64,000 bases of DNA from Streptomyces sp. PCS3-D2 (GTDB lineage Bacteria; Actinomycetota; Actinomycetes; Streptomycetales; Streptomycetaceae), in contig NZ_CP097800.1 of the NCBI RefSeq assembly GCF_000612545.2, positions 5,982,501 to 6,046,500 on the forward strand, read 5' to 3'. Positions 2,515 through 64,000 of the stretch are shown here, one piece after another; positions within the stretch are counted from its first letter, which is position 1, and every line of letters begins with the position of its first letter. Both the position numbers and the translations under genes were made by a program. Below the pieces are notes generated by a model. It was not told where the DNA came from. It worked only from the letters and a program-made list of their open reading frames with translations, and searched no databases.

Positions 2515-4713
2515 ATGTCCAACTCTCCCGACGATCGTCCGGAGCGCGAGCCTCGTCGCAACGACGGCGGTGACAGGGGCGGCTACCGCGGGGGCCGTGA
2601 CGACCGTGGCGGCGACCGTCCCCCGTTCCGTCGTGACGACCGCGGGGGCCGGCCGGCCGGTGGTGGCGGTGGAGGCTTCCGCCGCGACGACCGCGGTGGA
2701 CGTCCCGCCGGTGGCGGCGGTGGCTTCCGGCGCGACGACCGGGGCGGGGACCGTCCGTCCTACCCCCGCCGTGACGACCGTGGCGGGGAACGTGCCTCGT
2801 ATCCGCGTCGTGATGACGACCGTGGTGGCTACCGGGGTGGCCGTGACGACCGGGGTGGGGACCGTCCGTCCTACCCCCGCCGTGACGATCGTGGCGGGGA
2901 ACGTGCCTCGTACCCGCGCCGCGACGACCGCGGTGGCGACCGTCCTTCGTACCCGCGCCGTGACGACCGGGGTGACCGTCCGTCCTACCCGCGTCGTGAT
3001 GACGACCGTGGTGGCTACCGGGGTGGCCGCGACGACCGCGGTGGCGACCGTCCGTCCTACCCCCGCCGTGACGATCGTGGTGGGGAACGTGCCTCGTACC
3101 CGCGCCGCGACGACCGCGGTGGCGACCGTCCTTCGTACCCGCGCCGTGACGACCGGGGTGACCGTCCCTCGTACCCGCGTCGTGATGACGACCGTGGTGG
3201 CTACCGGGGTGGCCGCGACGACCGCGGTGGCGACCGTCCTTCGTACCCGCGCCGTGACGACCGGGGTGACCGTCCGTCCTACCCGCGTCGTGATGACGAC
3301 CGTGGTGGCTACCGGGGTGGCCGCGACGACCGCGGTGGCGACCGTCCTTCGTACCCGCGCCGTGACGACCGGGGCGACCGTCCCTCGTACCCGCGTCGTG
3401 ATGACGACCGTGGCGGCTACCGGGGTGGCCGCGACGACCGCGGTGGCGAGCGTCCCTCGTACCCGCGCCGTGACGACCGGGGCGGGGACCGTGGAGGCTT
3501 CCGTGGTGGGCGTGACGACCGCGGTGGCTACCGGGGCGGCCGCGACGACCGCGGTGGCGACCGTCCCTCGTACCCGCGCCGTGACGACCGGGGTGACCGT
3601 CCGTCCTACCCGCGTCGTGATGACGACCGTGGCGGCTACCGTGGTGGCCGTGACGACCGCGGTGGCGACCGTCCCTCGTACCCGCGCCGTGACGACCGGG
3701 GCGGGGACCGTGGAGGCTTCCGTGGTGGGCGTGACGACCGCGGTGGCTACCGTGGTGGCCGTGACGACCGCGGTGGCGACCGCGGCTACCGTTCGGACCG
3801 CGACCCCGTCAAGCGGCTTCCGATCGACGAGGACGTCACCGGTCTGGAGATCGACGCCGACGTGCGTCAGGAACTGCTGAGCCTGCCCAAGGGCCTGGCG
3901 GAAGAGGTCTCGAAGAACCTGGTCATGGTCGCCCGTCTGATCGACGAGGACCCCGAGCAGGCCTACGCGTACTCGCGCATCGCCCTGCGCCTGGCCTCCC
4001 GTGTCGCCGCCGTCCGCGAGGCGGCCGGCTTCGCCGCGTACGCCACGCAGAAGTACAGCGAGGCCCTGGCGGAGTTCCGTGCCGCCAAGCGCATGACCGG
4101 TTCCGTGGAGCTGTGGCCCGTCATGGCCGACTGCGAGCGCGGTCTCGGCCGTCCCGAGCGGGCCCTGGCCATGGCCGGCGAGCCCGAGGTGCAGAAGCTC
4201 GACAAGGCCGGCCAGGTCGAGATGCGTCTGGTCGCGGCCGGCGCCCGGCGGGACCAGGGGCAGCTCGAAGCCGCCATCGTGACCCTGCAGAGCCCCGAGC
4301 TGGCGTCCAGCGCCGTCCAGCCGTGGACGGCGCGCCTGCGGTACGCCTACGCCGACGCCCTGTTGGCGGCCGGTCGTGAGGACGAGGCCCGTGAGTGGTT
4401 CGGCAAGGCCCTGGAAGCGGACAAGGACGGGTCCACCGACGCTTCCGACCGTCTCGCCGAGCTCGACGGCGTCGAGTTCGTCGACGCCGCGGACCTGTCG
4501 GACGACGAAGAGGACCTGAACGAGGACCTCGCCGAAGGCCACCGGGAAGAGGACGACCAGGACGACGAGGACGACGAGGACGAGGACCCGGCCGAGATCG
4601 CCGCGGCCGAGCGCGCCACCGACGTCACCGAGTACTACGACGAGGACGACGAGGAGTACGAGCCGCTGGAGCAGTCCGGGGCCGACGCCGACGTCCGGGG
4701 CGACAAGGCCTGA
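2515..4713 (+). CDS. RGG/SYPRR-repeat protein with TPR-like helical domain
   Basis: The protein has about 732 residues. Residues ~15-425 are a low-complexity tandem array built from DDRGG, YRGGRDD and RPSYPRR units, very rich in Arg, Gly and Asp. Residues ~440-660 (from VKRLPIDEDVTGLEI) form a helical, Ala/Leu-rich region resembling tetratricopeptide hairpins (EAAGFAAYATQKYSEALAEF). The tail after ~670 is strongly acidic. I chose ATG 2515 because GGAG at 2503-2506 sits eight bases upstream; an ATG at 2479 lacks such a site. RGG-type arrays bind RNA in other proteins, so an RNA- or ribosome-related role is plausible next to an rRNA operon, but this is inference. TPR-like proteins with this tail are conserved in Streptomyces; the array length probably varies between strains. 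Confidence 0.85.
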   Translation: MSNSPDDRPEREPRRNDGGDRGGYRGGRDDRGGDRPPFRRDDRGGRPAGGGGGGFRRDDRGGRPAGGGGGFRRDDRGGDRPSYPRRDDRGGERASYPRRDDDRGGYRGGRDDRGGDRPSYPRRDDRGGERASYPRRDDRGGDRPSYPRRDDRGDRPSYPRRDDDRGGYRGGRDDRGGDRPSYPRRDDRGGERASYPRRDDRGGDRPSYPRRDDRGDRPSYPRRDDDRGGYRGGRDDRGGDRPSYPRRDDRGDRPSYPRRDDDRGGYRGGRDDRGGDRPSYPRRDDRGDRPSYPRRDDDRGGYRGGRDDRGGERPSYPRRDDRGGDRGGFRGGRDDRGGYRGGRDDRGGDRPSYPRRDDRGDRPSYPRRDDDRGGYRGGRDDRGGDRPSYPRRDDRGGDRGGFRGGRDDRGGYRGGRDDRGGDRGYRSDRDPVKRLPIDEDVTGLEIDADVRQELLSLPKGLAEEVSKNLVMVARLIDEDPEQAYAYSRIALRLASRVAAVREAAGFAAYATQKYSEALAEFRAAKRMTGSVELWPVMADCERGLGRPERALAMAGEPEVQKLDKAGQVEMRLVAAGARRDQGQLEAAIVTLQSPELASSAVQPWTARLRYAYADALLAAGREDEAREWFGKALEADKDGSTDASDRLAELDGVEFVDAADLSDDEEDLNEDLAEGHREEDDQDDEDDEDEDPAEIAAAERATDVTEYYDEDDEEYEPLEQSGADADVRGDKA
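2560..3800 (+). repeat. in-frame tandem repeat array encoding RGG/SYPRR units
   Basis: Long, nearly identical units such as GACCGTCCGTCCTACCCGCG and GGTGGCTACCGGGGTGGCCG recur in a nested order. Small units coding DRPSYPRRDDRG and larger ones adding DDDRGGYRGGRDDRGG alternate. Neighbouring copies differ mainly by synonymous C/T changes, which suggests both recent unit duplication and selection on the protein. The array is wholly inside the coding sequence starting at 2515. Confidence 0.95.
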
Positions 4714-7316: not shown

Positions 7317-8375
7317 GTGTTGGTTGAGAGTCCCCCCGAACCCGGGCCGCGCACGGTGCCCCCGCCGGACACCGTCGCCCGCCCTCGCCATGCCGCGCGT
7401 GCCGCGGGCCTGGCCGGCGCCCTCGCGGTGCTCGCCCTGATCTCGGTGCTGAGCATCGCCGTGGGCGCCAGGCAGATGCCCCTGGACGAGGTCTGGCACG
7501 GTCTCTTCCACTACTCGGGGACCACCTCGGACGTGGTGGTGCGGGATCTCCGGGTCCCGCGCACCCTCCTCGGGCTGATGGTCGGCCTCGGCCTCGGCCT
7601 GTCCGGGGCGGTGATGCAGGCGCTGACCCGCAACCCGCTGGCCGAGCCCGGCATCCTCGGCGTCAACGCCGGTGCCGCCGCGGCCGTCGTCTCGGCGATC
7701 AGCTTCTTCGGCGCGAGCTCGCTGAGCGAGTTCGTGTGGTGGGCCTTCCTCGGCGCGGCCGTCGTCTCGGTCGTCGTGTACGTGCTCGGCGGCAGCCGCA
7801 GCGCCACGCCGGTGCGCCTGGCGCTCGCCGGTACGGCGGCCAGCGCCGCCCTCGTCGGCTACATCAACGCGGTGCAGCTGATGGACAGCACGGCGCTGGA
7901 CAAGCTGCGCTTCTGGACGGTGGGCTCGCTGGCGTCGGCCACCATGGACACCGTCCGCCAGGTCGCTCCCTTCCTGCTGGCGGGCGCGGTGCTCGCGCTG
8001 GCGCTCGGCCGGCCGCTCAACGCGATGGCGATGGGTGACGACACGGCCAGGGCGCTCGGCGCGAACCTGACGCGGACCCGGATCGGCGCGATGCTCGCCA
8101 TCACCCTGCTCTGCGGTGCGGCGACCGCCGCCTGCGGGCCCATCGTCTTCATAGGCCTGATGATCCCGCACCTGGTGCGGGTCTTCACCGGACCGGACAT
8201 GCGCTGGGTGCTCGCGTACTCGGCCGTCCTGTCGCCCGTCCTGCTGCTCGCCGCGGACGTCGTCGGCAGGGTCGTCACCCGGCCCGCCGAGCTCCAGGTC
8301 GGCATCGTCACCGCGCTCATCGGCGGGCCCGTCTTCATCCACCTCGTCCGGCGCAAGAGGATGGCCCAGCTGTGA
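7317..8375 (+). CDS. Iron-siderophore ABC transporter permease (FecCD family)
   Basis: The 352-residue protein is a FecCD/BtuC-type inner-membrane permease. It shows the family features RVPRTLLGLMVGLGLGLSG followed by QALTRNPLAEPGILGVNAGA, and a C-terminal PIVFIGLMIPHLVR (the loop that meets the ATPase). About nine to ten hydrophobic segments are visible. The likely start is GTG 7317, only five bases after the iron box, with no Shine-Dalgarno sequence, so translation may be nearly leaderless. It overlaps the next permease by four bases (GTGA), and together they form the heterodimeric pore of an importer for a ferric siderophore. Substrate cannot be told from sequence. Confidence 0.93.
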   Translation: MLVESPPEPGPRTVPPPDTVARPRHAARAAGLAGALAVLALISVLSIAVGARQMPLDEVWHGLFHYSGTTSDVVVRDLRVPRTLLGLMVGLGLGLSGAVMQALTRNPLAEPGILGVNAGAAAAVVSAISFFGASSLSEFVWWAFLGAAVVSVVVYVLGGSRSATPVRLALAGTAASAALVGYINAVQLMDSTALDKLRFWTVGSLASATMDTVRQVAPFLLAGAVLALALGRPLNAMAMGDDTARALGANLTRTRIGAMLAITLLCGAATAACGPIVFIGLMIPHLVRVFTGPDMRWVLAYSAVLSPVLLLAADVVGRVVTRPAELQVGIVTALIGGPVFIHLVRRKRMAQL

Positions 8376-9418
8376 CCGTGACCGCCAAAGCCCGTCCCCT
8401 GCGGCTCCCGGGCGGGATGTCCCTGCGGATCGAGCGGCGCGCCCTGGCCGTCGGCGGCCTGCTCGTCCTCGTCGCCTTCGCCATGTCCGTGCTGCTGATC
8501 GGCACCGGCGACTTCGACATCGCGCCGTGGGACGTGGTACGGACCCTGCTCGGCAACGGCACCCCCGCCGACGACTTCATCGTCAACGAGCTGCGGATGC
8601 CGCGGGTGCTGGTCGCCCTGCTGGTGGGTGCGGCCCTCGGGATGGCCGGAGCCGTCTTCCAGTCGGTGACCCGCAACCCGCTCGGCTCGCCCGACCTGCT
8701 CGGCTTCTCGTACGGGTCCGCGGTCGGCGCCCTCGTCGTCATCATCCTGATGAAGGGCTCGGCGACCGAGGTCGCCGCCGGCGCGCTGCTCGGCGGCCTG
8801 CTGGCCGGCGCGGCCGTCTACCTGCTGGCGTACAAGCGGGGCATCCACGGCTACCGGCTGGTCCTGGTGGGCATCGGCGCCTCCGCCATGCTGGTGGCCG
8901 TCATCCAGTACCTGATCACCAAGGCCCAGCTCGTGGAGGCCTCGCGGGCGATGGTCTGGCTGACCGGTTCGCTGGCCGGCCGGGACTGGGCACAAGTGTG
9001 GCCGCTGCTGGCGACCTGCGCGGTGCTGTTCCCGCTCGTGCTGGGGCAGAGCCGGGCGTTGCGGATGATCGAGATGGGCGACGACGCCGCGTACGCGGTC
9101 GGGGTGCGGGTGGAGCGCACGCGGTTGCTGCTGATGACGGCCGCGATCCTGCTCACCACGGCGGCGAGCGCGGCGGCCGGGCCGATCAGCTTCGTCGCGC
9201 TGGCCGCGCCGCAGCTGGCGCGGCGGCTGACCCGCTCGCCGGGCGCCAACCTGCTGACCGCCTCCCTCATGGGCTCGGTGGTGCTGCTGCTCTCGGACTG
9301 GGCCTCGCAGCGGGCCTTCGGCGCGGACCAGCTGCCGGTGGGTGTGGTGACCGGGCTGGTCGGCGGTGTCTATCTGCTCTGGCTGCTCGTCACCGAGCGC
9401 AGGGCGGGACGTATATGA
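8372..9418 (+). CDS. Iron-siderophore ABC transporter permease, second subunit (FecCD family)
   Basis: This 348-residue paralogue of the preceding permease carries the same FecCD marks: LRMPRVLVALLVGAALGMAG, QSVTRNPLGSPDLLGFSYG and PISFVALAAPQLARRL. It starts at GTG 8372 inside the stop codon of the upstream gene and its own stop overlaps the ATG of the ATPase gene (ATGA at 9415). The three genes are therefore translationally coupled and must be one iron-regulated transcript. It pairs with the upstream permease to form the channel. Confidence 0.93.
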   Translation: MTVTAKARPLRLPGGMSLRIERRALAVGGLLVLVAFAMSVLLIGTGDFDIAPWDVVRTLLGNGTPADDFIVNELRMPRVLVALLVGAALGMAGAVFQSVTRNPLGSPDLLGFSYGSAVGALVVIILMKGSATEVAAGALLGGLLAGAAVYLLAYKRGIHGYRLVLVGIGASAMLVAVIQYLITKAQLVEASRAMVWLTGSLAGRDWAQVWPLLATCAVLFPLVLGQSRALRMIEMGDDAAYAVGVRVERTRLLLMTAAILLTTAASAAAGPISFVALAAPQLARRLTRSPGANLLTASLMGSVVLLLSDWASQRAFGADQLPVGVVTGLVGGVYLLWLLVTERRAGRI

Positions 9419-55006: not shown

Positions 55007-55486
55007 ATGAAACGCATTGGCGTGACCGGGCACCGGTCCATCCCGGACGCGGTGCTCGGCCATGTGGAGAGCGGCCTGCGGACCGTACTGGGCGGCCACG
55101 AAGGGCCGCTGGAGGCCCTCTCCAGCCTCGCCGACGGAGCGGACCAGCTCTTCGCGGCCATCGCGCTCGAATGCGGCGCCGACCTCACCGTGGTGATCCC
55201 CAGCGAGGACTACGAGGAGGGCTTCGACGGCGCCGAAGCGCTCGACCGCTACCGGCGGCTCAGGCTCCGGGCCACCCAGGAGATCCGGATGGACTTCGCA
55301 CGCTCCACGGACGAGGCCTACTACGCCGCGGGCACCTACATCGCCGACTCCTGCGACCGGCTCGTCGCCGTCTGGGACGGCCGGCCCGCCCGCGGCCACG
55401 GCGGCACCGCCGAGATCGTGGCCTACGCCCGGGCCCTCGGCAAGCCGGTCACCGTCCTGTGGTGCGAGGGCGTGACCCGGGACTGA
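55007..55486 (+). CDS. SLOG-domain nucleotide-binding protein
   Basis: The 159-residue protein starts MKRIGVTGHRSI (the GxTGHR loop), has SLADGADQLFAAIALECGAD and VVIPSEDYEEGF, then YYAAGTYIADSCDRLVAVWD and GHGGTAEIVAYARALGKPV. This is the pattern of small SLOG (LOG/DprA-superfamily) proteins, which bind nucleotides or nucleotide-derived signals and are predicted sensors in bacterial conflict systems. ATG 55007 is chosen; an upstream ATG at 54964 overlaps the terminator stem. It converges with the SLATT gene, 25 bases apart. A link between the two is inferred from family knowledge and position only. Confidence 0.8.
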   Translation: MKRIGVTGHRSIPDAVLGHVESGLRTVLGGHEGPLEALSSLADGADQLFAAIALECGADLTVVIPSEDYEEGFDGAEALDRYRRLRLRATQEIRMDFARSTDEAYYAAGTYIADSCDRLVAVWDGRPARGHGGTAEIVAYARALGKPVTVLWCEGVTRD

Positions 55487-55511
55487 GCCACCCCCTCCCA
55501 CCACCGGTACC

Positions 55512-56420
55512 TCAACTGCTGTGCCGGGCCAGCCAGTCCGTGTGCTGCGGCGAGACGTACCGCTCGGTCTCGTACACCGACGAGGGCCACTGGGACTCGG
55601 TGATGGTCGTCTGCATCACCACCATCATCGCCGCGAGGTCCTGCTCGATCAGCGTGTGCGCCTCGATCAGCGGGTGGTGGCGGCGCACCTCGTTCCAGGC
55701 GATGCCGGCTGCCGCCGCCGTGCTCAGCAGCCCCGTCAGACCCGCCCCCGGACCCGAGCCGAACGCCCTCATCAGGGCGAACAGCAGCGCCAGACAGGTC
55801 AGGAGGACGATCGTCCACGACCACAAGGCCGTCGCCCGCCGGGACACCTCCGTGCGCCGCCGATACCAGTTGCGCTGCTCGATCAGCCGGTCCCGGACGT
55901 ACGTCTCCCGCCGCACGTGGTAGTTCGTGCCGCGCAGCCGGTGCATCGCGCCGGTGATCTCCGCGCCCTCCGGCACCGCGCCGGCCGTGCGCGGATCCTC
56001 CCAGCCCATCTTCCGCAGCTCGGCCAGCCCGGCCTCCAGACGGGTCCGGTAGGTCTCGCCCGGATCGTCCACGTCACTGCCGAACGGCGCACCGTGGACC
56101 GCGTACCGCCAGGCGAGCGACTTGATGAACTCCGCCGCGCTGCGGTTGAGCTGCCACTGCGGGCGGGCCCGGCGCCTGGTCGCCCGCATGCCGACGACCA
56201 GCACCCCCGCGTAACAGAGCACGCTCAGCAGCGCGAACAGGTGCAGCGAGCCGAGCTCCGGCCCCGGCGGCAGCGCGGCGGCACCCGCAGCCGCGACGAG
56301 CAGCAGCAGTTGGCTCCTCGTGGCCTGCGTGGACTCCCGCTGCCGGGAGATCGCCGCCTGGTCCGTGTGGTGGAAGAGGGCCGGCAGGTCCTCGTTCCGA
56401 AAGGTCATGCTGTCGGTCAC
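55512..56420 (-). CDS. SLATT/DUF4231 membrane protein
   Basis: The 302-residue protein has two hydrophobic hairpins: residues ~37-50 with ~58-78, and ~198-217 with ~227-241. Between them lie Arg-rich helices (YHVRRETYVRDRLIEQRNWY). The RYAVHGAPFG and ETYRTRLEAGL segments match SLATT-type two-TM proteins (DUF4231), which are predicted pore-forming effectors that partner with SLOG or SMODS nucleotide sensors. GTG 56420 has a GAGGGGGG site upstream. It follows FxsT by 61 bases on the same strand, so it is probably the last gene of the fxs operon. Confidence 0.82.
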   Translation of the reverse strand: MTDSMTFRNEDLPALFHHTDQAAISRQRESTQATRSQLLLLVAAAGAAALPPGPELGSLHLFALLSVLCYAGVLVVGMRATRRRARPQWQLNRSAAEFIKSLAWRYAVHGAPFGSDVDDPGETYRTRLEAGLAELRKMGWEDPRTAGAVPEGAEITGAMHRLRGTNYHVRRETYVRDRLIEQRNWYRRRTEVSRRATALWSWTIVLLTCLALLFALMRAFGSGPGAGLTGLLSTAAAAGIAWNEVRRHHPLIEAHTLIEQDLAAMMVVMQTTITESQWPSSVYETERYVSPQHTDWLARHSS

Positions 56421-56481
56421 AACGCCCCCCTCGAATCGGGTGGCCGGCGACAGGGCCCCGGCCCCGTCGCCCGCCGTCGGA

Positions 56482-59400
56482 TCACACGGCGAGGGGCTCC
56501 AGGTCCCGGTGGACCCGCCGCTCGTCCCGTGCGTACCGGGTCAGGCTGTGGTCCTCGCCGAGCATCCTGGCCAGTTCGACCACCGCCTCGGTCCGCACCC
56601 GGGCCGCTTCCTCCGTGCGGCCCATCGAGTCCAGGCTCACCGCCATGTTGGAACTGCTCGCCAGGGTCTCCGGGTGGAGCGCACCGAGCGCCTCGCGCAG
56701 CCGCGGCACCGCGAGGCGCTCCAGCTCCAGGGCCCCCTCCGGGTCGCCCTGGTCGGCCCGGGCGTTGGCCAGGTTGATCGTGGCGAAGGCGGTGTGCGGG
56801 TGATCCGCGCCCAGCACCTCCCGCATCAGCCGGATCGTCTGCCGCAGCATCACCTCCGCCTGCTCCGCCGCCCCGGTGCCCCAGAGGAAGACCGCCAGGT
56901 TGTTCACGGCCGCGAGCGTGTACGGGTGCCGCTCGCCCGGGACCTTCATGTACTCGTCCACCGCCTCCTGCGCCAGGTCCCGCGCCCCGCCCGGGTCGCC
57001 GGTCGCGAACAGGTCCGAGGCCAGGTTCAGTTCGCAGGAGAGCAGGTCCGGGTTGACCGAGGTGTACTTGGCCCGGTAGCGGGCCCGGGTGGCCGTGGTG
57101 AGCCGCAGGGCGTCCTCCAGCTGGCCGGCCCGGCGCAGCGACACCGCCAGGTTCTTCGCCGCCGACAGGGTGCCGGGGAAGCCCCGCCCCAGCGTCCGCT
57201 TGTAGATCTCGTACGTCCGGCTGAGCAGCTGCACCGAGTCCTCGTACCGGCCCACCTCGCGCAGGTCGCGGGCGAGGTTCTGCGCGGACGACAGGGTGTA
57301 GGGGTGCTCCGGGCCCAGCACCTCCGTGCGCAGGTCGTACACCTCCTGGTCGATCTCGCGGGCCCTGCTGTACTGGCCCACCAGCCGCAGGTTCAGCGCC
57401 AGGTTGTTCGCGGCGGCCAGGGTGCGCGGATGCGCCTCGTGGAAGATCTGGCTGAACCCCTCGTGGGCCTCGGTCGCCAGCTCCATGGCCTGCGCGTACT
57501 GGCCCAGCGCGCCCAGCGTGTTGGCCAGACCGCTCGTCGTCATGTAGGTGTGCGGGTGCGAGGGGCCCAGGACCGCCTTCTGCCGCTCCAGGGTGATCTC
57601 GTCCAGCTCCTTCGCCTCCACGAACCGGCCCTGCGAGCGCAGGATGTTCGACAGGTGGAAACGCAGGTACAGGTACTGAAGGTCGTCGTTGCCCAGCATC
57701 TCCTTCCAGGCCTCGCGCAGCTCCTCGCCGAGCTGGTAGGCGGCCTTGAAGTCACCGCGCTTCCAGAGGTAGCGGACCCGGTCGATCAGCAGCCTGCGCG
57801 TCTCCGGTTCCTTGCAGTACCGGGCCTCGGACGGGGTGAGGTGCGACCAGATGGTGTTGAACCGCGGCCACGTCTCCGGGTTGTCGATCGGCTCGTCGTC
57901 GTCCGGCCGGGCACCGGCCAGGATCCGGTGGACGGCGTGCCGGGCCTCCCGCTGCTCCTCCTCCGGCATCTGCGACCGGATCACGGCCTGCACCAGCCGG
58001 TGCACCTGGATGCTGTTGCTGACCTGGTCGACCTTGGCCAGCGCGAACCGGCCGATCTCCCGGATCACCCGGCCCAGCACCAGCTTCTCCTGGAGCGAGG
58101 CGTCGTACGGCTTGAGGGCGTCGATCATCTCCTTGCTGTAGAGCAGGTTCGCCGAGATCGGCTCGGGCGCCAGGAAGGCACACAGCTGCAGCAGCCGCAC
58201 AGCGGCCGGCGAACGGGACTGGAGCCGCTCTATGGAGATGTTCCAGGTGGCGGCCACCGGCTCCGGGTATCCGGGCGGCTGGTTGAGGGCCAGCACGCTC
58301 GCCGCCTGCTGGGCCAGCTGCTCCAGGTACGCGGCCACCGGGGTTGCGGTCTCCGCGATCCAGGCACCCGCCTGCTCGACCGCCAGCGGCAGGTCGCCCA
58401 CCGCGATCGCCACCTGCTCGGCGTCGTCCGTGGTGAGCCCGGGGGCCCGGCGCTGGAGGTGCTCGACGGACTCCTCGCGCAGGAACACGTCCACCGGGAG
58501 CGCGTCGCCGTACTGCGACCAGGACTGGTTGCGGGAGGTCACCAGCACGTGCCCCGGACCGCCCGTCGGGAAGAACCGCTTCAGGGCCTCCGGATCGTCC
58601 GCGTTGTCGAAGACCAGCAGCCACCGGGAGGAGGGCACCCCGCGCCGCAGCAGGTCGATCGCCTCCTGTGAGGCGGCCGCCATGTCCTCGCCCGTCTGCA
58701 CCCCCAGCCGTACGGCCAACTCCGCGAGCGCGGCGACCACGTCGTCGGTCTGCTCCGAGGAGATCCACCACACCAGGTCGTAGTCGGCCATGAACCGGTG
58801 CACGTACTCCAGGGCCACCTGGGTCTTGCCGACGCCGCCGAGGCCGAACAGGGTCTGCGGCTGCGGGAGCACCACGGCCATGCCGCCGCCGAGCTGGTCG
58901 CGCATCCGCTCCAGCACCATGCTGCGCCCGGTGAACCCGGGATTGCGGGGCGGAGCGTTCCAGATCTTCGGAACCGTCCCCGGGAAGCGGGGCCCGGCGT
59001 GCGAGGAGCCTGCCACGCTGTCCGGCAGGGCCATGGGCCGCTCCACCGCGCGCAGCAGGGCGGCGGTGGCGTGCACCTCGTCGAGCCGGAAGAGGTCCAC
59101 CGGGTTGCGGTCGATGTACGGCGTGGACAGCCGCACGTCGCCCACCCTCAAGGGCACCAGCTGGCGCCGGCCCCCGGTCGGGTCCTCGGCGGCCGCCCGC
59201 TCCCACACGTCCACGGCCCGGGCGGACTTCAGGTAGGCCGTGGAGAGCAGCACCACCGTGCGCGCGGCGGTGTCGACGCTGATGCCCGTGCCGCCGCCCA
59301 GGGTGTCCCCCGCGGAGCCTGTGCCGCCCGACGGCGGCGGCCGCTCGGCCGAGACGTCCTTGGGCACCACCCGGAAGCCCGCCCGGGTGAGCACCGACTC

Positions 59401-60483
59401 GATCCAGTCGGCCCACATCCGGTTCTCGGCGACATAGGACAGGAACAGGTCGGCCGGCAGCGCCGGGCGGCGCCGGGTGAAGGCGTCCCTGATGCGCAGG
59501 CGGACCTCCTCGCCGATGGCGGGCATGGAGGTGATCTCGCCGTCGGTGACCACGGCGGTCAGCCGCTCGAACGCCGAGAGCAGGGAGTTGGTCAGCCCGG
59601 CCTCGTCGCCGAAGGTGGCCAGCGTCTCCTCGTAGGCGTAGTACGGCCGGTAGGGGATTTCCACCGCGCCCCAGTAGGACGTCAGCTCGTCCCCGAGCAG
59701 GCCGCCCGGGAACCGGTCGAACTTGAGCCGGGCGAGCGCCCGGCCGGCGTCCGCCTTCTCCTTCTCGCCCTCGTCGATCCGCATCGGGACCGGGTAGATC
59801 TTGATGCCGCGGTCGTTGAAACGCTCGTCGATCTGGCGGGCCACGGCCGCGGCGCCGTCGATGGACTGGTCGGACAGGGTGAAGCAGTCGACCAGGACGT
59901 CCGGGAGGTGAACGGTGCAGATGTCCGCGATGTCGGACAGACCGGTACGGCTGTCGATCAGGACGTAGTCGTAGTTCCGCTTCATGTCGGCGCGTAAGGC
60001 GTCGAAGAACAGGCCGCCGCCGAGCCGGTCATAGAAGTTGTCCCAGTCGAAGGTGGACACCGTCGCCGAGTACTCGCGGTTCTGCCGTCCCGCCGAGACG
60101 AAGTCCAGGGTGCCGCCGTCCGGGAACTCCCAGCCCAGGATCTCCGGCGTGAGCGAGACCGCGTGCGGCTGGATACGCGCGTAGTCCTTGTGCCAGTCGT
60201 CGGCACGCGCCACCGGACTGGTCGCGGCCCACGCGTACTCGCTGATCAGGTCGATCACCCCGGTGGTGGCCCCGAGCGTGGAGGGGTCGAGGAAGGGGTG
60301 GAAGAAGCGGTGCAGGCCCGGGGCCTCCAGGTCCCAGTCCACGGCCAGCACCCGCTTGCCGTTGGCCGCCAGGATCCAGGCGGTGTTGGCCAGCGCCATG
60401 GTGCGGCCCGTGCCGCCCTTGTACGAGTAGAAGGTGACGATGCGCCCGTCACGGCCTTCGCTGCTGTCACGACTCGCTGTCAT
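56482..60483 (-). CDS. fxsT: FxsT: ParA-like, TIR-like, NB-ARC and TPR multidomain protein
   Basis: The 1333-residue protein has four parts. Residues ~15-330 are a MinD/ParA-like ATPase (TFYSYKGGTGRTMALANTAW with Walker A at 22-29; AVDWDLEAPGLHRFF; YVLIDSRTGLSDIAD). Residues ~343-465 are TIR-like (ADLFLSYVAENRMWADWIE). Residues ~500-900 are a STAND/NB-ARC unit (LFGLGGVGKTQVALEYV near 548; WLLVFDNADDPEAL near 626). The C-terminus (~905-1330) is TPR repeats (TLAAANNLALNLRLVGQYSR and similar). This is the plan of the 'FxSxx-COOH system' TPR protein. ATG 60483 overlaps the fxsC stop by 17 bases. Role in the RiPP pathway is not established; the domains suggest signal-dependent assembly. Confidence 0.86.
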   Translation of the reverse strand: MTASRDSSEGRDGRIVTFYSYKGGTGRTMALANTAWILAANGKRVLAVDWDLEAPGLHRFFHPFLDPSTLGATTGVIDLISEYAWAATSPVARADDWHKDYARIQPHAVSLTPEILGWEFPDGGTLDFVSAGRQNREYSATVSTFDWDNFYDRLGGGLFFDALRADMKRNYDYVLIDSRTGLSDIADICTVHLPDVLVDCFTLSDQSIDGAAAVARQIDERFNDRGIKIYPVPMRIDEGEKEKADAGRALARLKFDRFPGGLLGDELTSYWGAVEIPYRPYYAYEETLATFGDEAGLTNSLLSAFERLTAVVTDGEITSMPAIGEEVRLRIRDAFTRRRPALPADLFLSYVAENRMWADWIESVLTRAGFRVVPKDVSAERPPPSGGTGSAGDTLGGGTGISVDTAARTVVLLSTAYLKSARAVDVWERAAAEDPTGGRRQLVPLRVGDVRLSTPYIDRNPVDLFRLDEVHATAALLRAVERPMALPDSVAGSSHAGPRFPGTVPKIWNAPPRNPGFTGRSMVLERMRDQLGGGMAVVLPQPQTLFGLGGVGKTQVALEYVHRFMADYDLVWWISSEQTDDVVAALAELAVRLGVQTGEDMAAASQEAIDLLRRGVPSSRWLLVFDNADDPEALKRFFPTGGPGHVLVTSRNQSWSQYGDALPVDVFLREESVEHLQRRAPGLTTDDAEQVAIAVGDLPLAVEQAGAWIAETATPVAAYLEQLAQQAASVLALNQPPGYPEPVAATWNISIERLQSRSPAAVRLLQLCAFLAPEPISANLLYSKEMIDALKPYDASLQEKLVLGRVIREIGRFALAKVDQVSNSIQVHRLVQAVIRSQMPEEEQREARHAVHRILAGARPDDDEPIDNPETWPRFNTIWSHLTPSEARYCKEPETRRLLIDRVRYLWKRGDFKAAYQLGEELREAWKEMLGNDDLQYLYLRFHLSNILRSQGRFVEAKELDEITLERQKAVLGPSHPHTYMTTSGLANTLGALGQYAQAMELATEAHEGFSQIFHEAHPRTLAAANNLALNLRLVGQYSRAREIDQEVYDLRTEVLGPEHPYTLSSAQNLARDLREVGRYEDSVQLLSRTYEIYKRTLGRGFPGTLSAAKNLAVSLRRAGQLEDALRLTTATRARYRAKYTSVNPDLLSCELNLASDLFATGDPGGARDLAQEAVDEYMKVPGERHPYTLAAVNNLAVFLWGTGAAEQAEVMLRQTIRLMREVLGADHPHTAFATINLANARADQGDPEGALELERLAVPRLREALGALHPETLASSSNMAVSLDSMGRTEEAARVRTEAVVELARMLGEDHSLTRYARDERRVHRDLEPLAV

Positions 60484-61822
60484 CCGCGTCCCCCCGGTCG
60501 GTGTCGTTGCTGTCGTTGCCGTCGTTGTGGCCGCCGAACGCGTCGGGCGGAAAGGGCGCCCTGGGCGGGGAGGACGCAGGCCCGTCCATCCCCATCGGCC
60601 CCAGTAGCCGCGGTCGTTCGATGCGGGTGTTCCCGGCCGGCAGGTAGACCTGGGCGTGTCTGAGGAACTGCTGCGCCGCGGCCTCGACCACCTGGGGCAG
60701 GATCTGTCCGAGGGTCTCCATGTTGGCCACCCCGTTGGCGGCGGCCCGGCAGGCGGCGCGGCCCTGTCCCATCTTGACGGGCAGGGTCTCCTCCAGCCGC
60801 CGTGCCAGTTCGAGCTCCTTCGCGCGGCTCTGGCGGTCGTAGCGGTTCCACGGCACGACCACGTTGACCCAGGGGCGGGACTCCTGGTCGAAGGCGGCCA
60901 GGCGCTGGCGGCGGTGCTCGTCCTCCACCACCCAGCGGTCGACGATCAGGATCTCCGGCCGGGTCGGCGGCTGCTTGCTGTCGTAGTGCCCCGCCTCGTC
61001 GTCGAAGGAGCCGATGCTGGTCTGGTAGTTGAGGTTCTTGACCAGGTCCTCCGCGACGTACGCGATGGGCCGCTGGGCCACCGGATGGTACGGATTCCAC
61101 TCCAGTGCGCTGTCCCCGTAGTACTCGGGGCTGCGCCCGTCCGGCAGGTCGTGCCGGGAGGCCGCGGCCACGGTCACGTGGAGGGTGCGGGCGGGGCTGC
61201 TGCCGGTGGGGCCGAAGGCGCTCGGCACCCCGCGGTAGTCCAGCGGGCGGACGGGTTCGAGCCGGACCGTCTCGGCGACCCGGACGATGCGTTTGGCGAG
61301 CTCGTACACCGCCCGCTCGTACTGCTCGGCGTACCCGCGCAGTTTGATCAGCCCGTACAGCCCGTCGGTGACATAGCGCTCGCCGAAGGTGTTGTGGTTG
61401 AACTGCAACCGTTCGGCCGGGCCCGGCAGTTGCGAGGGGGGGACCGGCACCCACAGCGCGGGCACGATGGCCTCGGCCGGCTGGTTGCTCAGCGCCCCCT
61501 GGTGGATCGCCCGCTGCGCGAAGGCGTACCACTCCTTGCCGCACATCTCACTGGCGAAGTACCGCGGCGAGAACAGCGGGACGAAGACCCGGCAGGTGGC
61601 GAGCGCCGCCCCGAGCCGCTCCGACCAGCCCTCGCCGCTGCGTATCTCCCGGTCCATGAAGCCGGCCTCGGCCCCGGCGGGCAGGTCCGTCAGCGCCATG
61701 ACATGGCTGCAGAGATCACGGAACAGGCGCTCCACCCACATGTCGGGGTCGGGCCCCCCGGCCCCGAACCTCGGTGTATGCGCGTAACTGAGAAAAAAAT
61801 ACGGCTGCACTGATGCGGGCAC
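60467..61822 (-). CDS. fxsC: FxsC: TIR-like protein of the FxSxx-COOH system
   Basis: The ~451-residue protein begins with a TIR/SEFIR-like domain: QPYFFLSYAHTPRFG, DREIRSGEGWSERLGAALAT and FVPLFSPRYFASEMCGKEWY. A second domain contains PTRPEILIVDRWVVEDEHRR and WVNVVVPWNRYDRQSRAKEL. The tail is Asn/Asp-rich. This match to the FxsC family is from memory of RiPP clusters in actinobacteria. Start is uncertain: GTG 61822 is chosen because it directly precedes the conserved domain and follows GGGGGG; ATG 61882 is possible and adds 20 residues. It overlaps fxsT by 17 bases. Confidence 0.82.
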   Translation of the reverse strand: MPASVQPYFFLSYAHTPRFGAGGPDPDMWVERLFRDLCSHVMALTDLPAGAEAGFMDREIRSGEGWSERLGAALATCRVFVPLFSPRYFASEMCGKEWYAFAQRAIHQGALSNQPAEAIVPALWVPVPPSQLPGPAERLQFNHNTFGERYVTDGLYGLIKLRGYAEQYERAVYELAKRIVRVAETVRLEPVRPLDYRGVPSAFGPTGSSPARTLHVTVAAASRHDLPDGRSPEYYGDSALEWNPYHPVAQRPIAYVAEDLVKNLNYQTSIGSFDDEAGHYDSKQPPTRPEILIVDRWVVEDEHRRQRLAAFDQESRPWVNVVVPWNRYDRQSRAKELELARRLEETLPVKMGQGRAACRAAANGVANMETLGQILPQVVEAAAQQFLRHAQVYLPAGNTRIERPRLLGPMGMDGPASSPPRAPFPPDAFGGHNDGNDSNDTDRGDADDSES

Positions 61823-61901
61823 ACGCCCCCCGTCTCGAAGATGCGAGCGAAGAAACATCATTCCGGAGCTGCTTCGCCACATCCCCTCATCGTTCAGTCA
61901 A

Positions 61902-62744
61902 TCAGCATCGGTTTTCGGTCATCCAGTCAAGGGCGTGGTCAACGGCTTCCGGGACGGAGAAGAGCATGGCCGACGCCCCGCCGACCCGCCCCCTGCGCAC
62001 CCGCGAATCCGGGAACGCCCTGCCGATCTCGGCGAAATCGCCGTCATCCAGTGCGACGTCCTCGTATGCGGTCCACTCCCCCTCCTGGCGGGACCCCTGA
62101 TACCCCTCCGAAAGATTCACCTTCACCACACACTCGTACATGCGCAAGGGGGGCTTCGGAATTCGATACTCCGCGAGATGGAAAGCGGTGCAGACGGAAA
62201 ACCCCACATTGATCATCAGTACCTGTCCGCCCTCCCAGCACAGCTTTCCCAGGGGTGACTCCTCACCCAGGTGGCTTTCCAGGCGGTGCCCGTCGCAGAG
62301 CCGCTCCGCGTCCGCGCCGAGCGCGGCGAAAGAGGTCTGCGGGTGGGAGCTGCGTGCGGCGCCCGGTGCGGTGCGGACGGCCTCGGCGAGCGAGCCCATG
62401 CCCTGGCTGGGGGTGCTCGCCGGGTCGAAGGCGGGCATCCGCTCGACGAAGGCCCGCACCTCGGCCTCGTCCATCCCGGCGATCCGCTCCAGGTGGGCGT
62501 CGGAGGTTCGGGAATTCTGCGGGGTGAACGCGGGCACGACCAGGGTCCCGCGCGGGCCCAGGACGCCCGTCAGGGCGTCGCGCAGCTGCTCGGCGCGCAG
62601 CCCGGTCCCGCGCAGCGAGGCGTGGACCAGGAGCTGCATCCCCGGCCGTACGCCGAGCAGCCGCAGCTGCACCGCGAGCTGGAGGGTGCCCGCGGCCCGG
62701 CGGCCCCGCCCCGGTCCGGACGGGGCGGGGGAGTGGCCGCTCAT
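61902..62744 (-). CDS. AAC(3)-like N-acetyltransferase in the fxs operon
   Basis: The 280-residue protein has the marks of the antibiotic AAC(3) family: LLVHASLRGTGLRAEQLRDA, GTLVVPAFTPQNSRTSDAHL and ARSSHPQTSFAALGADAE with the catalytic His region, then GEESPLGKLCWEGGQVLMIN. Family members acetylate aminoglycoside amines. In this setting it more likely modifies the RiPP peptide or gives self-protection; both are inference. ATG 62744 overlaps the stop of the FxsB-like gene by four bases. It is about 79 bases from the fxsC start. Confidence 0.88.
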   Translation of the reverse strand: MSGHSPAPSGPGRGRRAAGTLQLAVQLRLLGVRPGMQLLVHASLRGTGLRAEQLRDALTGVLGPRGTLVVPAFTPQNSRTSDAHLERIAGMDEAEVRAFVERMPAFDPASTPSQGMGSLAEAVRTAPGAARSSHPQTSFAALGADAERLCDGHRLESHLGEESPLGKLCWEGGQVLMINVGFSVCTAFHLAEYRIPKPPLRMYECVVKVNLSEGYQGSRQEGEWTAYEDVALDDGDFAEIGRAFPDSRVRRGRVGGASAMLFSVPEAVDHALDWMTENRC

Positions 62745-64000
62745 GCGTCGACCGCCTTCAGCTCGTAGCGCAGCTCGGCCACCAGCTGTTTGCCGGTGAC
62801 CGTCAGCTCGGCCGCGGCCGAGAGCCGGTCCAGGGCCTCGTGGATGAGGTCCGAGCCGCCCGGCTCGGGCCCCGCGGTGGCCCGCCGGTACGCCTCCACC
62901 GCCACCCGCTCGTGCACGTCCGCCAGCAGCCGTGACACGGGTACCGGGCGCGACCGCCACGGCGACGGGTGCTGCCACTCCCCGTCCAGCGCGTACAGGT
63001 CGGTCACCTCGGTCAGGGCGCGCAGCCGGGTCCGCCGCCGTCCGGTCAGCAGCGCGAGCGCGGTCTCCCGTACGCCCGCCGCGTACGGCACCCCGAGCGC
63101 CCCCGGCCCGTGCCGGCCGGCCTCGCCCCAGCCGCCGGCCCGCGGGCCGCCCGCGAGCGGGGTGAGCGTGGTCAGCCCGACCGCCGCCGCCCGGGCGAAA
63201 CCGGGCACCGCCTTGTGCAGCAGCGCCCAGGCCCGGTCGAGCCGACCGCGCCACTCCTCGGTCTCGCCCGCGCCGAGCCGGAGCCGGGGCGGGCGGGGGA
63301 AGCAGTTGCGGTAGGGGTCGAGGTCCTCCAGCGCCACCGGCGCCGCGCCCGGGCCGGGAGACCAGGTGCGTACGGGCTGCCAGCGGGCGTCGCCCGCCGC
63401 CGGTCCGAAGCGGTGCTCGGAGCGGCCGTCCCGGGCGGCGTAGCCGTCGTCGGTGACGCGCAGGGAGGCCCGGCCCTCGGTGCCCGGCTCCCCGAGCCGC
63501 AGCAGGCCGAGCGTCGGCAGGTACACCTCGCCGTCCCGGTAGGCCACCTCGGCCGGCAGGTCCAGCCCGCCGCGCAGCACGGCCGCGGCGGCCAGCGCGG
63601 TGAGCCTGCGGGCCGCCTCCGCACCGCCGGGCCGGCCGTCGCGCGCGGCGTCCAGCGACGCTAGCACCCAGGTCCGGGTGTACGGGTGGTCCAGTACGGC
63701 GTCCAGCGCGTCGGCGCCCGTCTCCCCGGCCCGCTCCACGGCGGCCACGAGCTCCCAGGCGTGCGCCCATGCGGGGTCGCCGGCCAGGTCCGTGTTCAAC
63801 CGGGCCAGCAGGATCCGGGTCAGCTCCTCCTGGGAGCGGGTCAGTTCGGCCGGGTCGGACAGCTGCGGGGCGGTCTCCCGGTGCGCCGTGCGGCCCTCGA
63901 CCCCGTCGACCAGTTCGCGCAGGTCGGTGCAGTACACGGAGGGGTTGTCGAAGCCGTTGGGGTCGCGGTAGCGGTGGGTGTAGAGGCCGCCGCCGCACGA
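62741..64000 (-). CDS. fxsB: FxsB-type radical SAM/SPASM maturase, C-terminal part (5' end outside window)
   Basis: Only the last 419 residues are visible. They start with the end of a SPASM domain (CGGGLYTHRYRDPNGFDNPS, then VYCTDLRELVDGVEG), which in FxsB binds an auxiliary Fe-S cluster. The rest resembles the HEXXH-containing domain fused to some FxsB proteins. At the expected metal site the protein reads LLTGRRRTRLRALTEVTDLY (TGRRR at 63032-63046), so the HEXXH motif is absent. The radical SAM core would lie upstream of base 64000. FxsB links residue side chains to form cyclophanes in the FxsA peptide. Confidence 0.8.
   Translation of the reverse strand, partial: SCGGGLYTHRYRDPNGFDNPSVYCTDLRELVDGVEGRTAHRETAPQLSDPAELTRSQEELTRILLARLNTDLAGDPAWAHAWELVAAVERAGETGADALDAVLDHPYTRTWVLASLDAARDGRPGGAEAARRLTALAAAAVLRGGLDLPAEVAYRDGEVYLPTLGLLRLGEPGTEGRASLRVTDDGYAARDGRSEHRFGPAAGDARWQPVRTWSPGPGAAPVALEDLDPYRNCFPRPPRLRLGAGETEEWRGRLDRAWALLHKAVPGFARAAAVGLTTLTPLAGGPRAGGWGEAGRHGPGALGVPYAAGVRETALALLTGRRRTRLRALTEVTDLYALDGEWQHPSPWRSRPVPVSRLLADVHERVAVEAYRRATAGPEPGGSDLIHEALDRLSAAAELTVTGKQLVAELRYELKAVDA

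What the first reader, a model, noticed from the sequence alone, without database searches (positions are those of the whole stretch)
55007..64000. FxSxx-COOH RiPP operon carrying TIR, STAND and SLATT parts, with a convergent SLOG gene
Five minus-strand genes are packed as one unit: FxsB C-terminus, AAC(3)-like enzyme, TIR-like FxsC, a ParA/TIR/NB-ARC/TPR FxsT and a SLATT membrane protein, with four-base to 79-base spacings. SLATT and SLOG proteins, TIR domains and STAND ATPases are all known building blocks of nucleotide-signalled bacterial immunity. A peptide-modifying maturase in the same operon suggests that a cyclophane peptide could be the signal, toxin or trigger. If so, the FxS pathway may be a defence or programmed-dormancy system rather than, or besides, an antibiotic pathway. 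The co-occurrence is seen; the mechanism is inferred.
Basis: partly seen in the sequence, partly recalled or inferred. Interest (0 to 1): 0.88.

Follow-up and report, generated by a model that had tools for sequence, protein, structure and literature searches.

The report
Peptide-maker locus with immune-type genes
A stretch of Streptomyces DNA makes a small chemically cross-linked peptide together with proteins typical of bacterial self-destruct immunity, and related species mostly carry or lack these genes as one block, which suggests that the peptide may take part in an immune or cell-suicide switch rather than being an ordinary antibiotic.

Summary
The window end holds a standalone FxSxx-COOH system (FxsB C-terminus, AAC(3)-like enzyme, FxsC, FxsT), then SLATT, and a convergent gene that folds as a YpsA-type SLOG protein. 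FxsA, ending FNSAL, lies 1.0 kb beyond the edge. At one chromosomal site the set is nearly all-or-none (23 full, 49 empty, 3 partial of 75). The same set recurs in four other neighbourhoods, and one empty site bears the scar of a block deletion. FxsC keeps the TIR Glu position; FxsT lacks it, so FxsC is the likelier enzyme and the FxsT TIR a likely adaptor. A conflict role was already proposed for the FxS core (Kaur 2020); the SLOG-SLATT module, its block-wise inheritance and the TIR division of labour are what this adds. No phage phenotype, product or ligand could be tested. SLATT is not universal: 11 of 50 Streptomyces B-C-T loci lack it, and my profiles found none in 33 of 34 loci of another family. 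New variant of a known kind.

The parts
55007..55486 (+). SLOG-fold protein (159 aa), YpsA-like, convergent with SLATT
   Evidence: No Pfam/NCBIfam/PADLOC hit at 1e-3; AlphaFold2 model pLDDT 94.9; Foldseek 2nx2 YpsA E 3.2e-09, then ShosA, DprA, LOG
55512..56420 (-). SLATT_3 + SLATT_1 membrane protein (302 aa)
   Evidence: PF18184 128 bits, PF18181 127 bits; NF033610, NF033634; three separable hydrophobic segments
56482..60483 (-). FxsT (1333 aa): KGGTGRT MinD/ParA-like domain, TIR domain without Glu at the catalytic position, NB-ARC STAND ATPase with intact P-loop, TPRs
   Evidence: NF040586 1055 bits, NF047398; PF13676, PF00931, TPR; motif counts
60467..61882 (-). FxsC (471 aa): TIR domain with Glu kept, plus C-terminal domain of unknown fold
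   Evidence: NF040588 237 bits, TIGR04276 210 bits; Glu counts; model poor overall, pLDDT 59, no fold match at E <= 0.001
61902..62744 (-). AAC(3)-like (Antibiotic_NAT fold) acetyltransferase, 280 aa
   Evidence: PF02522 230 bits; below the cut-off of each of the five NCBIfam AAC models hit; HPQ[T/S]SF motif in 39 of 42 rows
62741..64000 (-). FxsB, C-terminal part (whole protein 750 aa, start 993 bp beyond the window at G000:C1:6047493): radical SAM/SPASM maturase with a dead beta-hydroxylase extension
   Evidence: TIGR04269 581 bits, NF040587 421 bits; HExxH absent after residue 370 in 73 of 73 rows

Best explanation
The locus is a standalone FxSxx-COOH conflict cassette with an added SLOG-SLATT module. 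Shown: SLOG, SLATT, fxsB, C and T (with fxsA, often an AAC-like gene and an alpha/beta-hydrolase) form a unit that is mostly present or absent as a block and recurs at several chromosomal sites; in the loci listed no other called gene, so no exporter, lies inside the SLOG-to-hydrolase unit where that unit is unbroken; FxsC keeps the TIR Glu position and FxsT does not. Inferred, step by step: FxsB cross-links the FNS motif of FxsA; the AAC-like enzyme and the hydrolase trim or cap the peptide; the peptide stays in the cell and sets or releases the threshold of the STAND protein FxsT; activated FxsT oligomerises and recruits FxsC through its own TIR domain, which probably lacks catalysis; FxsC turns NAD+ into an ADP-ribose-type signal or depletes it; the YpsA-type SLOG protein senses or removes that signal; and SLATT opens or disrupts the membrane, so that the cell stops growing or dies.
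For: Linkage: SLATT (>=250 bits) and SLOG (>=150 bits) orthologs occur in exactly the same 42 of 150 genomes, next scores 126 and 118; FxsB within 9 kb in 41 of 42, FxsC and FxsT in 39 of 42 (two of the three misses sit at contig ends). All-or-none: between two conserved anchors in 75 genomes, all 23 sites with B+C+T also have SLATT and SLOG, and 51 of 52 sites without B+C+T lack both. On the anchor tree the FxS state changes at least 10 times on the best tree; on well-supported branches there are 5 independent pairs, and SLATT+SLOG goes the same way in 5 of 5 in most of 200 pairings (4 of 5 in a few; sign test median p 0.0625). Loss as a block: in G005 one 92-aa frame joins SLOG residues 20-70 to the last 42 residues of FxsT, next to a hydrolase fragment. 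Same set elsewhere: 7 genomes beside an MreB gene, and three genomes (G002, G125, G007) whose fetched flanks share no gene family with either site; first site empty in G002 and G007. Separate gain: a different SLATT directly upstream of fxsB in G346, another family. TIR: Glu in FxsC in 73 of 74 Streptomyces rows, in FxsT 0 of 72 aligned; over both families 74 of 76 and 0 of 32. P-loop kept in 72 of 73 FxsT rows, Walker B in 72 of 73. Literature: SLATT predicted to be an ADP-ribose-derivative-regulated membrane effector, TIR next to SLATT in phages, YpsA-clade SLOGs include cADPR sensors (PMC9503650, passages); ThsA SLOG binds 3'cADPR (PMC11204291, passages).
Against: No activity, product, ligand or phenotype was tested. 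Most linkage at the main site is shared descent, not many separate events. 11 of 50 Streptomyces B-C-T loci lack SLATT; in another family my profiles found SLATT in 1 and this SLOG in 0 of 34 (other SLATT or SLOG types could be missed). Natural strains keep SLOG+SLATT without FxsB, C, T (G057; L134 and L149) or FxS without SLATT at the MreB site (G040), so the modules can part. The FxsT TIR alignment across families is loose (29 of 61 rows gapped), and position +5 in FxsT is often Asp or Glu (51 of 73), so loss of catalysis is likely, not certain. The SLOG top hits are YpsA, ShosA and DprA; ThsA is not among the 50 listed. The site is not clearly a defence hotspot.
Confidence: 0.55

Rival explanations
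1. FxS is a secreted peptide antibiotic or bacteriocin pathway; SLATT, SLOG and TIR parts are immunity or regulation.
For: The maturase belongs to a cyclophane-forming RiPP family (TIGR04269); the AAC(3)-like gene could be read as tailoring or self-resistance.
Against: No exporter gene lies within the unbroken units listed, though one elsewhere in the genome is not excluded; a STAND ATPase with TPRs is an odd part of an antibiotic cluster; the last five residues of FxsA are FNSAL in 56 of 66 rows and close variants in the rest, unlike a diversifying toxin.
Confidence: 0.15
2. The peptide system is a developmental or stress signalling switch (STAND regulator, TIR signalling) with SLATT as a physiological channel, not an immune or suicide system.
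For: In a phylum sample FxsC is over cut-off in 4 of 326 genomes, all of 7 Mb or more, the size of complex actinobacteria; one TTA codon in fxsT of the window, the classic bldA mark (recalled).
Against: Patchy all-or-none presence at one site with about 10 changes on the tree is unlike a developmental core function; a block-deletion scar in G005.
Confidence: 0.2
3. SLOG-SLATT is a separate two-gene system that only shares the site with FxS (linkage by synteny).
For: The main site has the same flanks in both arrangements; SLOG+SLATT survive without FxsB, C, T in G057, L134, L149.
Against: Same combination in four other neighbourhoods; a second, different SLATT beside FxS in another family; 51 of 52 sites without B+C+T lack SLATT and SLOG.
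Confidence: 0.1

Closest known systems
Standalone FxSxx peptide-processing system with TIR/AP-ATPase and inactive MinD/ParA domain (Kaur et al. 2020, PMC7159879, section 24 read, other passages seen)
   Same: FxSxx precursor, rSAM/SPASM maturase, AP-ATPase with TPRs, KGGxGR ParA-like domain, predicted conflict role
   Different: Section 24 does not mention SLATT, SLOG, the AAC(3)-like enzyme or the alpha/beta-hydrolase; it calls the zincin-like domain a metallopeptidase, which NCBIfam now names a peptide beta-hydroxylase, and here it is inactivated. Its supplement was not available to me
Thoeris (ThsB TIR + ThsA SIR2-SLOG or TM-macro)
   Same: TIR protein, SLOG-fold protein and, in one branch, a membrane effector; nucleotide signalling is the inferred logic here (PMC11204291, passages)
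   Different: No SIR2 or macro domain found, SLOG is a separate YpsA-like protein, STAND ATPase and RiPP genes added; no ThsA among the 50 listed fold hits
TIR-SLATT gene pairs of firmicute phages and GTPase-centred conflict systems with SLATT (PMC9503650 and PMC7159879, passages)
   Same: TIR next to SLATT, SLATT as predicted nucleotide-regulated membrane effector
   Different: No RiPP maturase or FxsT-type STAND protein named in the passages seen
VMAP-ternary systems with FxSxx peptides
   Same: FxsC-like domain and peptide module; the same genome has an FxsC domain beside a VMAP-M2 protein (L008)
   Different: No MoxR, vWA or VMAP match among the window and flank proteins scanned

Membership tests
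FxSxx-COOH system (FxsABCT) | Precursor ending F-x-S-x-x-COOH | tested here: met
   FxsA ends FNSAL; TIGR04268 27.2 bits, just under the cut-off 28
FxSxx-COOH system (FxsABCT) | FxsB-type radical SAM/SPASM maturase | tested here: met
   TIGR04269 581 bits, cut-off 370
FxSxx-COOH system (FxsABCT) | FxsC and FxsT | tested here: met
   NF040588, TIGR04276, NF040586 over cut-offs
FxSxx-COOH system (FxsABCT) | Active HExxH hydroxylase domain (not required: NCBIfam has a model for the inactivated form) | tested here: not met
   FxsB C-terminus is NF040587, inactivated form; HExxH absent in 73 of 73 rows
SLATT proteins | SLATT domains over curated cut-offs | tested here: met
   PF18184, PF18181, NF033610, NF033634
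SLATT proteins | Paired TM helices | tested here: inconclusive
   Three separable hydrophobic segments, a fourth window overlaps the third
SLOG superfamily, YpsA-like | YpsA/DprA/LOG Rossmann fold | tested here: met
   Foldseek 2nx2 TMq 0.78, prob 1.00
Thoeris | ThsA effector (SIR2-SLOG or TM-macro) | tested here: not met
   No SIR2 or macro domain in the genes of the unit scanned
VMAP-ternary system | MoxR AAA+, vWA and VMAP genes adjacent | tested here: not met
   No such match among the unit's proteins and the nine flank proteins scanned
Anti-phage defence system | Protection against phage in an assay | not testable with these tools
   PADLOC: FxsT matches candidate model PDC-M28B through its ParA-like part; FxsB only a weak pVip match, 32 bits; hydrolase none
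Catalytic TIR NADase | Glu at the last place of S-x-x-Y-x-x-S-x-x-C-x-x-E (motif recalled) and NADase activity | tested here: inconclusive
   Position kept in FxsC, lost in FxsT; activity not testable

The most novel reading that the evidence does not exclude
A ribosomal cyclophane peptide is the intracellular ligand or safety catch of a TIR-STAND immune circuit: loss or change of the mature peptide, which needs SAM, an iron-sulphur enzyme and fresh translation, releases FxsT, which recruits FxsC through a TIR domain without catalysis; the FxsC nucleotide product is read by a separate YpsA-type SLOG protein and fires a SLATT membrane effector. This would be a Thoeris-like circuit gated by a RiPP.
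Probability: 0.25. Interest if true: 0.9.

Novelty: new variant of a known kind. Interest (0 to 1): 0.62.

Why it matters
FxSxx-COOH systems are common in Streptomyces (FxsC over cut-off in 53 of 150 genomes), and I found no experimental function for them in the papers held. The SLOG-SLATT linkage and the split of TIR residues between FxsC and FxsT turn a vague idea (peptide signal or toxin) into an ordered circuit with testable residues and natural partial loci: only FxsT (G029), only FxsB and hydrolase (G054), only SLOG-SLATT (G057).

Tried and rejected
Linkage as proof: the first count (41 of 42 with FxsB nearby) looked like strong evidence, but one search showed shared flanks at one site, so it is mostly one inherited locus. 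I therefore tested empty sites, other sites and another family.

I first took the alpha/beta-hydrolase for a housekeeping flank; it also follows FxsT, convergently, at unrelated sites and in another family, so it is a cassette partner. FxsC C-terminal fold: model weak (pLDDT 59), no Foldseek hit at E <= 0.001, no PDB sequence relative at E <= 0.1. FxsT TIR against PDB sequences: one chance hit at E 0.42. SLOG against PDB sequences: none at E <= 1. Defence-hotspot idea: not supported, one PADLOC candidate ATPase apart.

Papers, by listing unless said: 'FxSxx-COOH' in 2 papers, one relevant; cyclophane with FxsB or FxsC 0; FxsA/FxsB 1, irrelevant; SLATT/Streptomyces/TIR/STAND 48, of which 20 listed, only PMC7159879 bore on FxS as far as seen; SLATT/SLOG/pore/nucleotide 13; Thoeris/SLOG 12, 8 listed; triceptide/cyclophane 11; two more searches listed 12 of 182 and 12 of 44 papers, none on FxS immunity by title and abstract start. 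Subscription papers are not held, so absence from print is not shown.

Rows dropped before counts: searches used typed coordinates of 50 SLATT, 47 SLOG, 75 FxsC (over cut-off only), 58 FxsT and 64 FxsB rows; the FxsT and FxsB tables were themselves cut ('more matches are not listed'), so FxS loci without SLATT may be undercounted. The other-family loci were picked from the top of the hit list, tandem FxsC first, so their shares are not a fair sample. Motif counts use rows that passed a bit threshold: 73 FxsT, 74 FxsC, 73 FxsB, 66 FxsA, 42 AAC.


Full report
What is there. The window is G000:C1:5982501-6046500. Its last 9 kb hold, on the minus strand, FxsB (C-terminal part), an AAC(3)-like enzyme, FxsC, FxsT and a SLATT protein, and on the plus strand a short convergent gene. 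Reading past the edge (L007) gives the rest of FxsB and FxsA, a 54-codon gene with a GTG start that ends FNSAL. FxsB is a TIGR04269 maturase (581 bits) whose C-terminal extension is the inactivated hydroxylase form NF040587 (421 bits). FxsT joins a KGGTGRT ParA-like domain, a TIR domain, an NB-ARC ATPase and TPRs. The convergent gene has no family hit at 1e-3, but its AlphaFold2 model (pLDDT 94.9) is a SLOG fold, nearest to YpsA, then ShosA and DprA, with LOG further down the list.

Linkage in the genus. I searched the same 150 genus genomes for SLATT, FxsC, SLOG, FxsT and FxsB. SLATT at >= 250 bits and SLOG at >= 150 bits occur in exactly the same 42 genomes; the next scores are 126 and 118. 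Five further genomes have only weak SLATT hits (126 bits or less), none linked. In 39 of 42 the two genes are within 220 bp, convergent; the other gaps are 1.5, 4.0 and 10.7 kb. FxsB lies within 9 kb in 41 of 42, FxsC and FxsT in 39 of 42; in G028 and G139 the contig ends, and G057 has no FxS there. A GTDB contig scan returned 151 relatives of which 80 were kept, all Streptomyces by title: SLATT and SLOG in 80 of 80, FxsB in 75, FxsC in 73, FxsT in 72, FxsA in 65, AAC in 41, hydrolase in 64; contig ends and the 10-kb flank limit cause part of the misses. Two arrangements exist: I, as in the window, 26 loci; II, with the fxsA-T block the other way round and fxsA divergent from SLATT, 51 loci; 3 loci have no FxsB, C or T. 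AAC is present in 26 of 26 of type I and 14 of 51 of type II.

Is it more than synteny? The flanks are the same in both arrangements, so most of this is one inherited site with an inverted block. Four further tests were made. First, between two conserved anchors in 75 genomes the site holds all five genes in 23, none in 49, and a part in 3 (G057 SLOG+SLATT, G054 FxsB, G029 FxsT). On a tree of the left anchor the FxS state needs at least 10 changes on the best tree; starred branches force 5 for the label 'full'. In 5 well-supported independent pairs SLOG+SLATT went the same way in 5 of 5 in most of 200 pairings, 4 of 5 in a few; five pairs cannot reach p 0.05 (median p 0.0625). Second, in G005 the otherwise empty site keeps a 92-aa frame that joins SLOG residues 20-70 (65% identity) to the last 42 residues of FxsT (67%), beside a hydrolase fragment (67%): one deletion removed the stretch from SLOG through FxsT. 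Third, 29 of the 42 cassettes lie near the left anchor, 7 lie away from the left anchor that the genome possesses, and 6 have no left anchor found. Flanks show a second site beside an MreB gene in 7 genomes (MreB_Mbl 360 bits in the one scanned) and three genomes (G002, G125, G007) whose fetched flanks share no gene family with either site; each has SLOG, SLATT and FxS together, though in G079 SLOG is 10.7 kb off. Fourth, in a phylum sample FxsC was over cut-off in 4 of 326 genomes, and one of them, G346 of another family, has a SLATT protein (SLATT_1 57 bits, DUF4231 52 bits, SLATT_3 25 bits, under its cut-off) directly upstream of fxsB. That is a separate association.

Limits of the linkage. 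Of 50 B-C-T loci in the 150 genomes 39 have SLATT and 11 do not. In the family of G346, FxsC is over cut-off in 46 of 160 genomes; of 40 loci of that family annotated, chosen from the strong hits, 34 have B, C and T, 20 of these a convergent hydrolase, 19 AAC, 23 two or more FxsC, 1 SLATT and 0 this SLOG by my profiles. SLOG-SLATT is therefore an added module, typical of Streptomyces, not part of the minimal FxS core.

Working parts. In FxsC the Glu position of the TIR motif is kept in 73 of 74 Streptomyces rows and in 74 of 76 aligned rows over both families (78 rows, 2 gapped, 2 Gln). In FxsT the same column is Val, Leu, Ile, Phe or Met in 72 of 73 Streptomyces rows, one gapped, and Glu in 0 of 32 aligned rows over both families (61 rows, 29 gapped, so the alignment there is loose). 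The column before it in FxsT is Asp or Glu in 51 of 73, so a shifted acid cannot be ruled out. FxsT has KGGTGRT in 72 of 73 rows, one gapped, and a P-loop and Walker B in 72 of 73 each. HExxH is absent after residue 370 in 73 of 73 FxsB rows. The hydrolase keeps Ser (97 of 97 ungapped of 107), Asp (106 of 106) and His (106 of 106). Where the SLOG-to-hydrolase unit is unbroken it holds no other called gene, so no exporter; one elsewhere is not excluded. From this I infer an intracellular peptide, FxsT as sensor with a TIR adaptor, FxsC as the likely enzyme, SLOG as sensor or processor, SLATT as membrane effector. Only the residues and the gene sets are shown; the order of action is inference.

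What else sits at the site. In nine cassette-free genomes the protein starts suggest metabolic, secreted and regulatory genes. Six of these proteins, of five genomes' sites, were scanned: FAD/NAD-binding, ABC ATPase, DUF1684, alcohol/aldehyde dehydrogenase, a GTP/ATP-binding protein and an AAA ATPase; the last (G068) matches PADLOC candidate models (HEC-01A 142 bits). This is weak evidence either way.

What is known. Kaur et al. 2020 (PMC7159879; section 24 and passages read) describe FxSxx peptide processing with VMAP systems and standalone loci with a TIR/AP-ATPase and an inactive MinD/ParA domain, and suggest a peptide toxin or signal. PMC9503650 (passages) states the SLATT and YpsA-clade SLOG predictions; PMC11204291 (passages) the 3'cADPR pocket of the ThsA SLOG. 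I found no paper that links SLATT or SLOG to FxS in the searches (listings only, apart from the passages named).

Verdict. It is a new variant of a known, poorly understood kind, with a clear and testable circuit.

Noticed in passing
L008 = G000:C1:7218001-7238000 (FxsC domain near 7228150-7229291): The same genome holds an FxsC domain in a large protein beside a VMAP-M2 protein, a VMAP-ternary-like locus.
   Followed up: partly
L009 = G000:C1:2550001-2568000: Another FxS-type locus: an FxsT-family protein without the ParA domain (1019 aa), an aKG-HExxH hydroxylase domain and an FxsB-type maturase at 2560607-2561701.
   Followed up: partly
G000:C1:4418958-4420034: A further FxsB-family hit (421 bits, over cut-off) in the window's genome, context not read.
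   Followed up: no
L007:11975-12877 (-), about 0.8 kb beyond fxsA: alpha/beta-hydrolase with intact Ser-Asp-His; a frequent convergent neighbour of FxsT at unrelated sites and in another family.
   Followed up: yes
L192 (G005:C1:1253000-1270200), 3791-4417: Deletion scar: a 92-aa frame fuses a piece of SLOG to the end of FxsT, beside a hydrolase fragment.
   Followed up: yes
G402:C25:46143-46906: A weak FxsC-type TIR stretch directly beside a weak SLATT_3 stretch in a distant relative of the same phylum.
   Followed up: no
L212 (G139:C608) and L242, L243 (G486, G524): Two FxS gene sets packed together, with FxsT genes on opposite strands.
   Followed up: no
window 56482-60483, codon 163 of fxsT: One TTA codon, rare in Streptomyces (recalled); fxsB, AAC, fxsC, SLATT and SLOG have none.
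   Followed up: no
window 56482-60483: The FxsT ParA-like part matches PADLOC candidate models PDC-M28B (80 and 48 bits).
   Followed up: no
L180 (G057:C1:6455500-6472000), 7319-8389: Where FxS is missing beside SLOG-SLATT, a canonical ParA-type ATPase (KGGVGKT) lies among the other genes.
   Followed up: no
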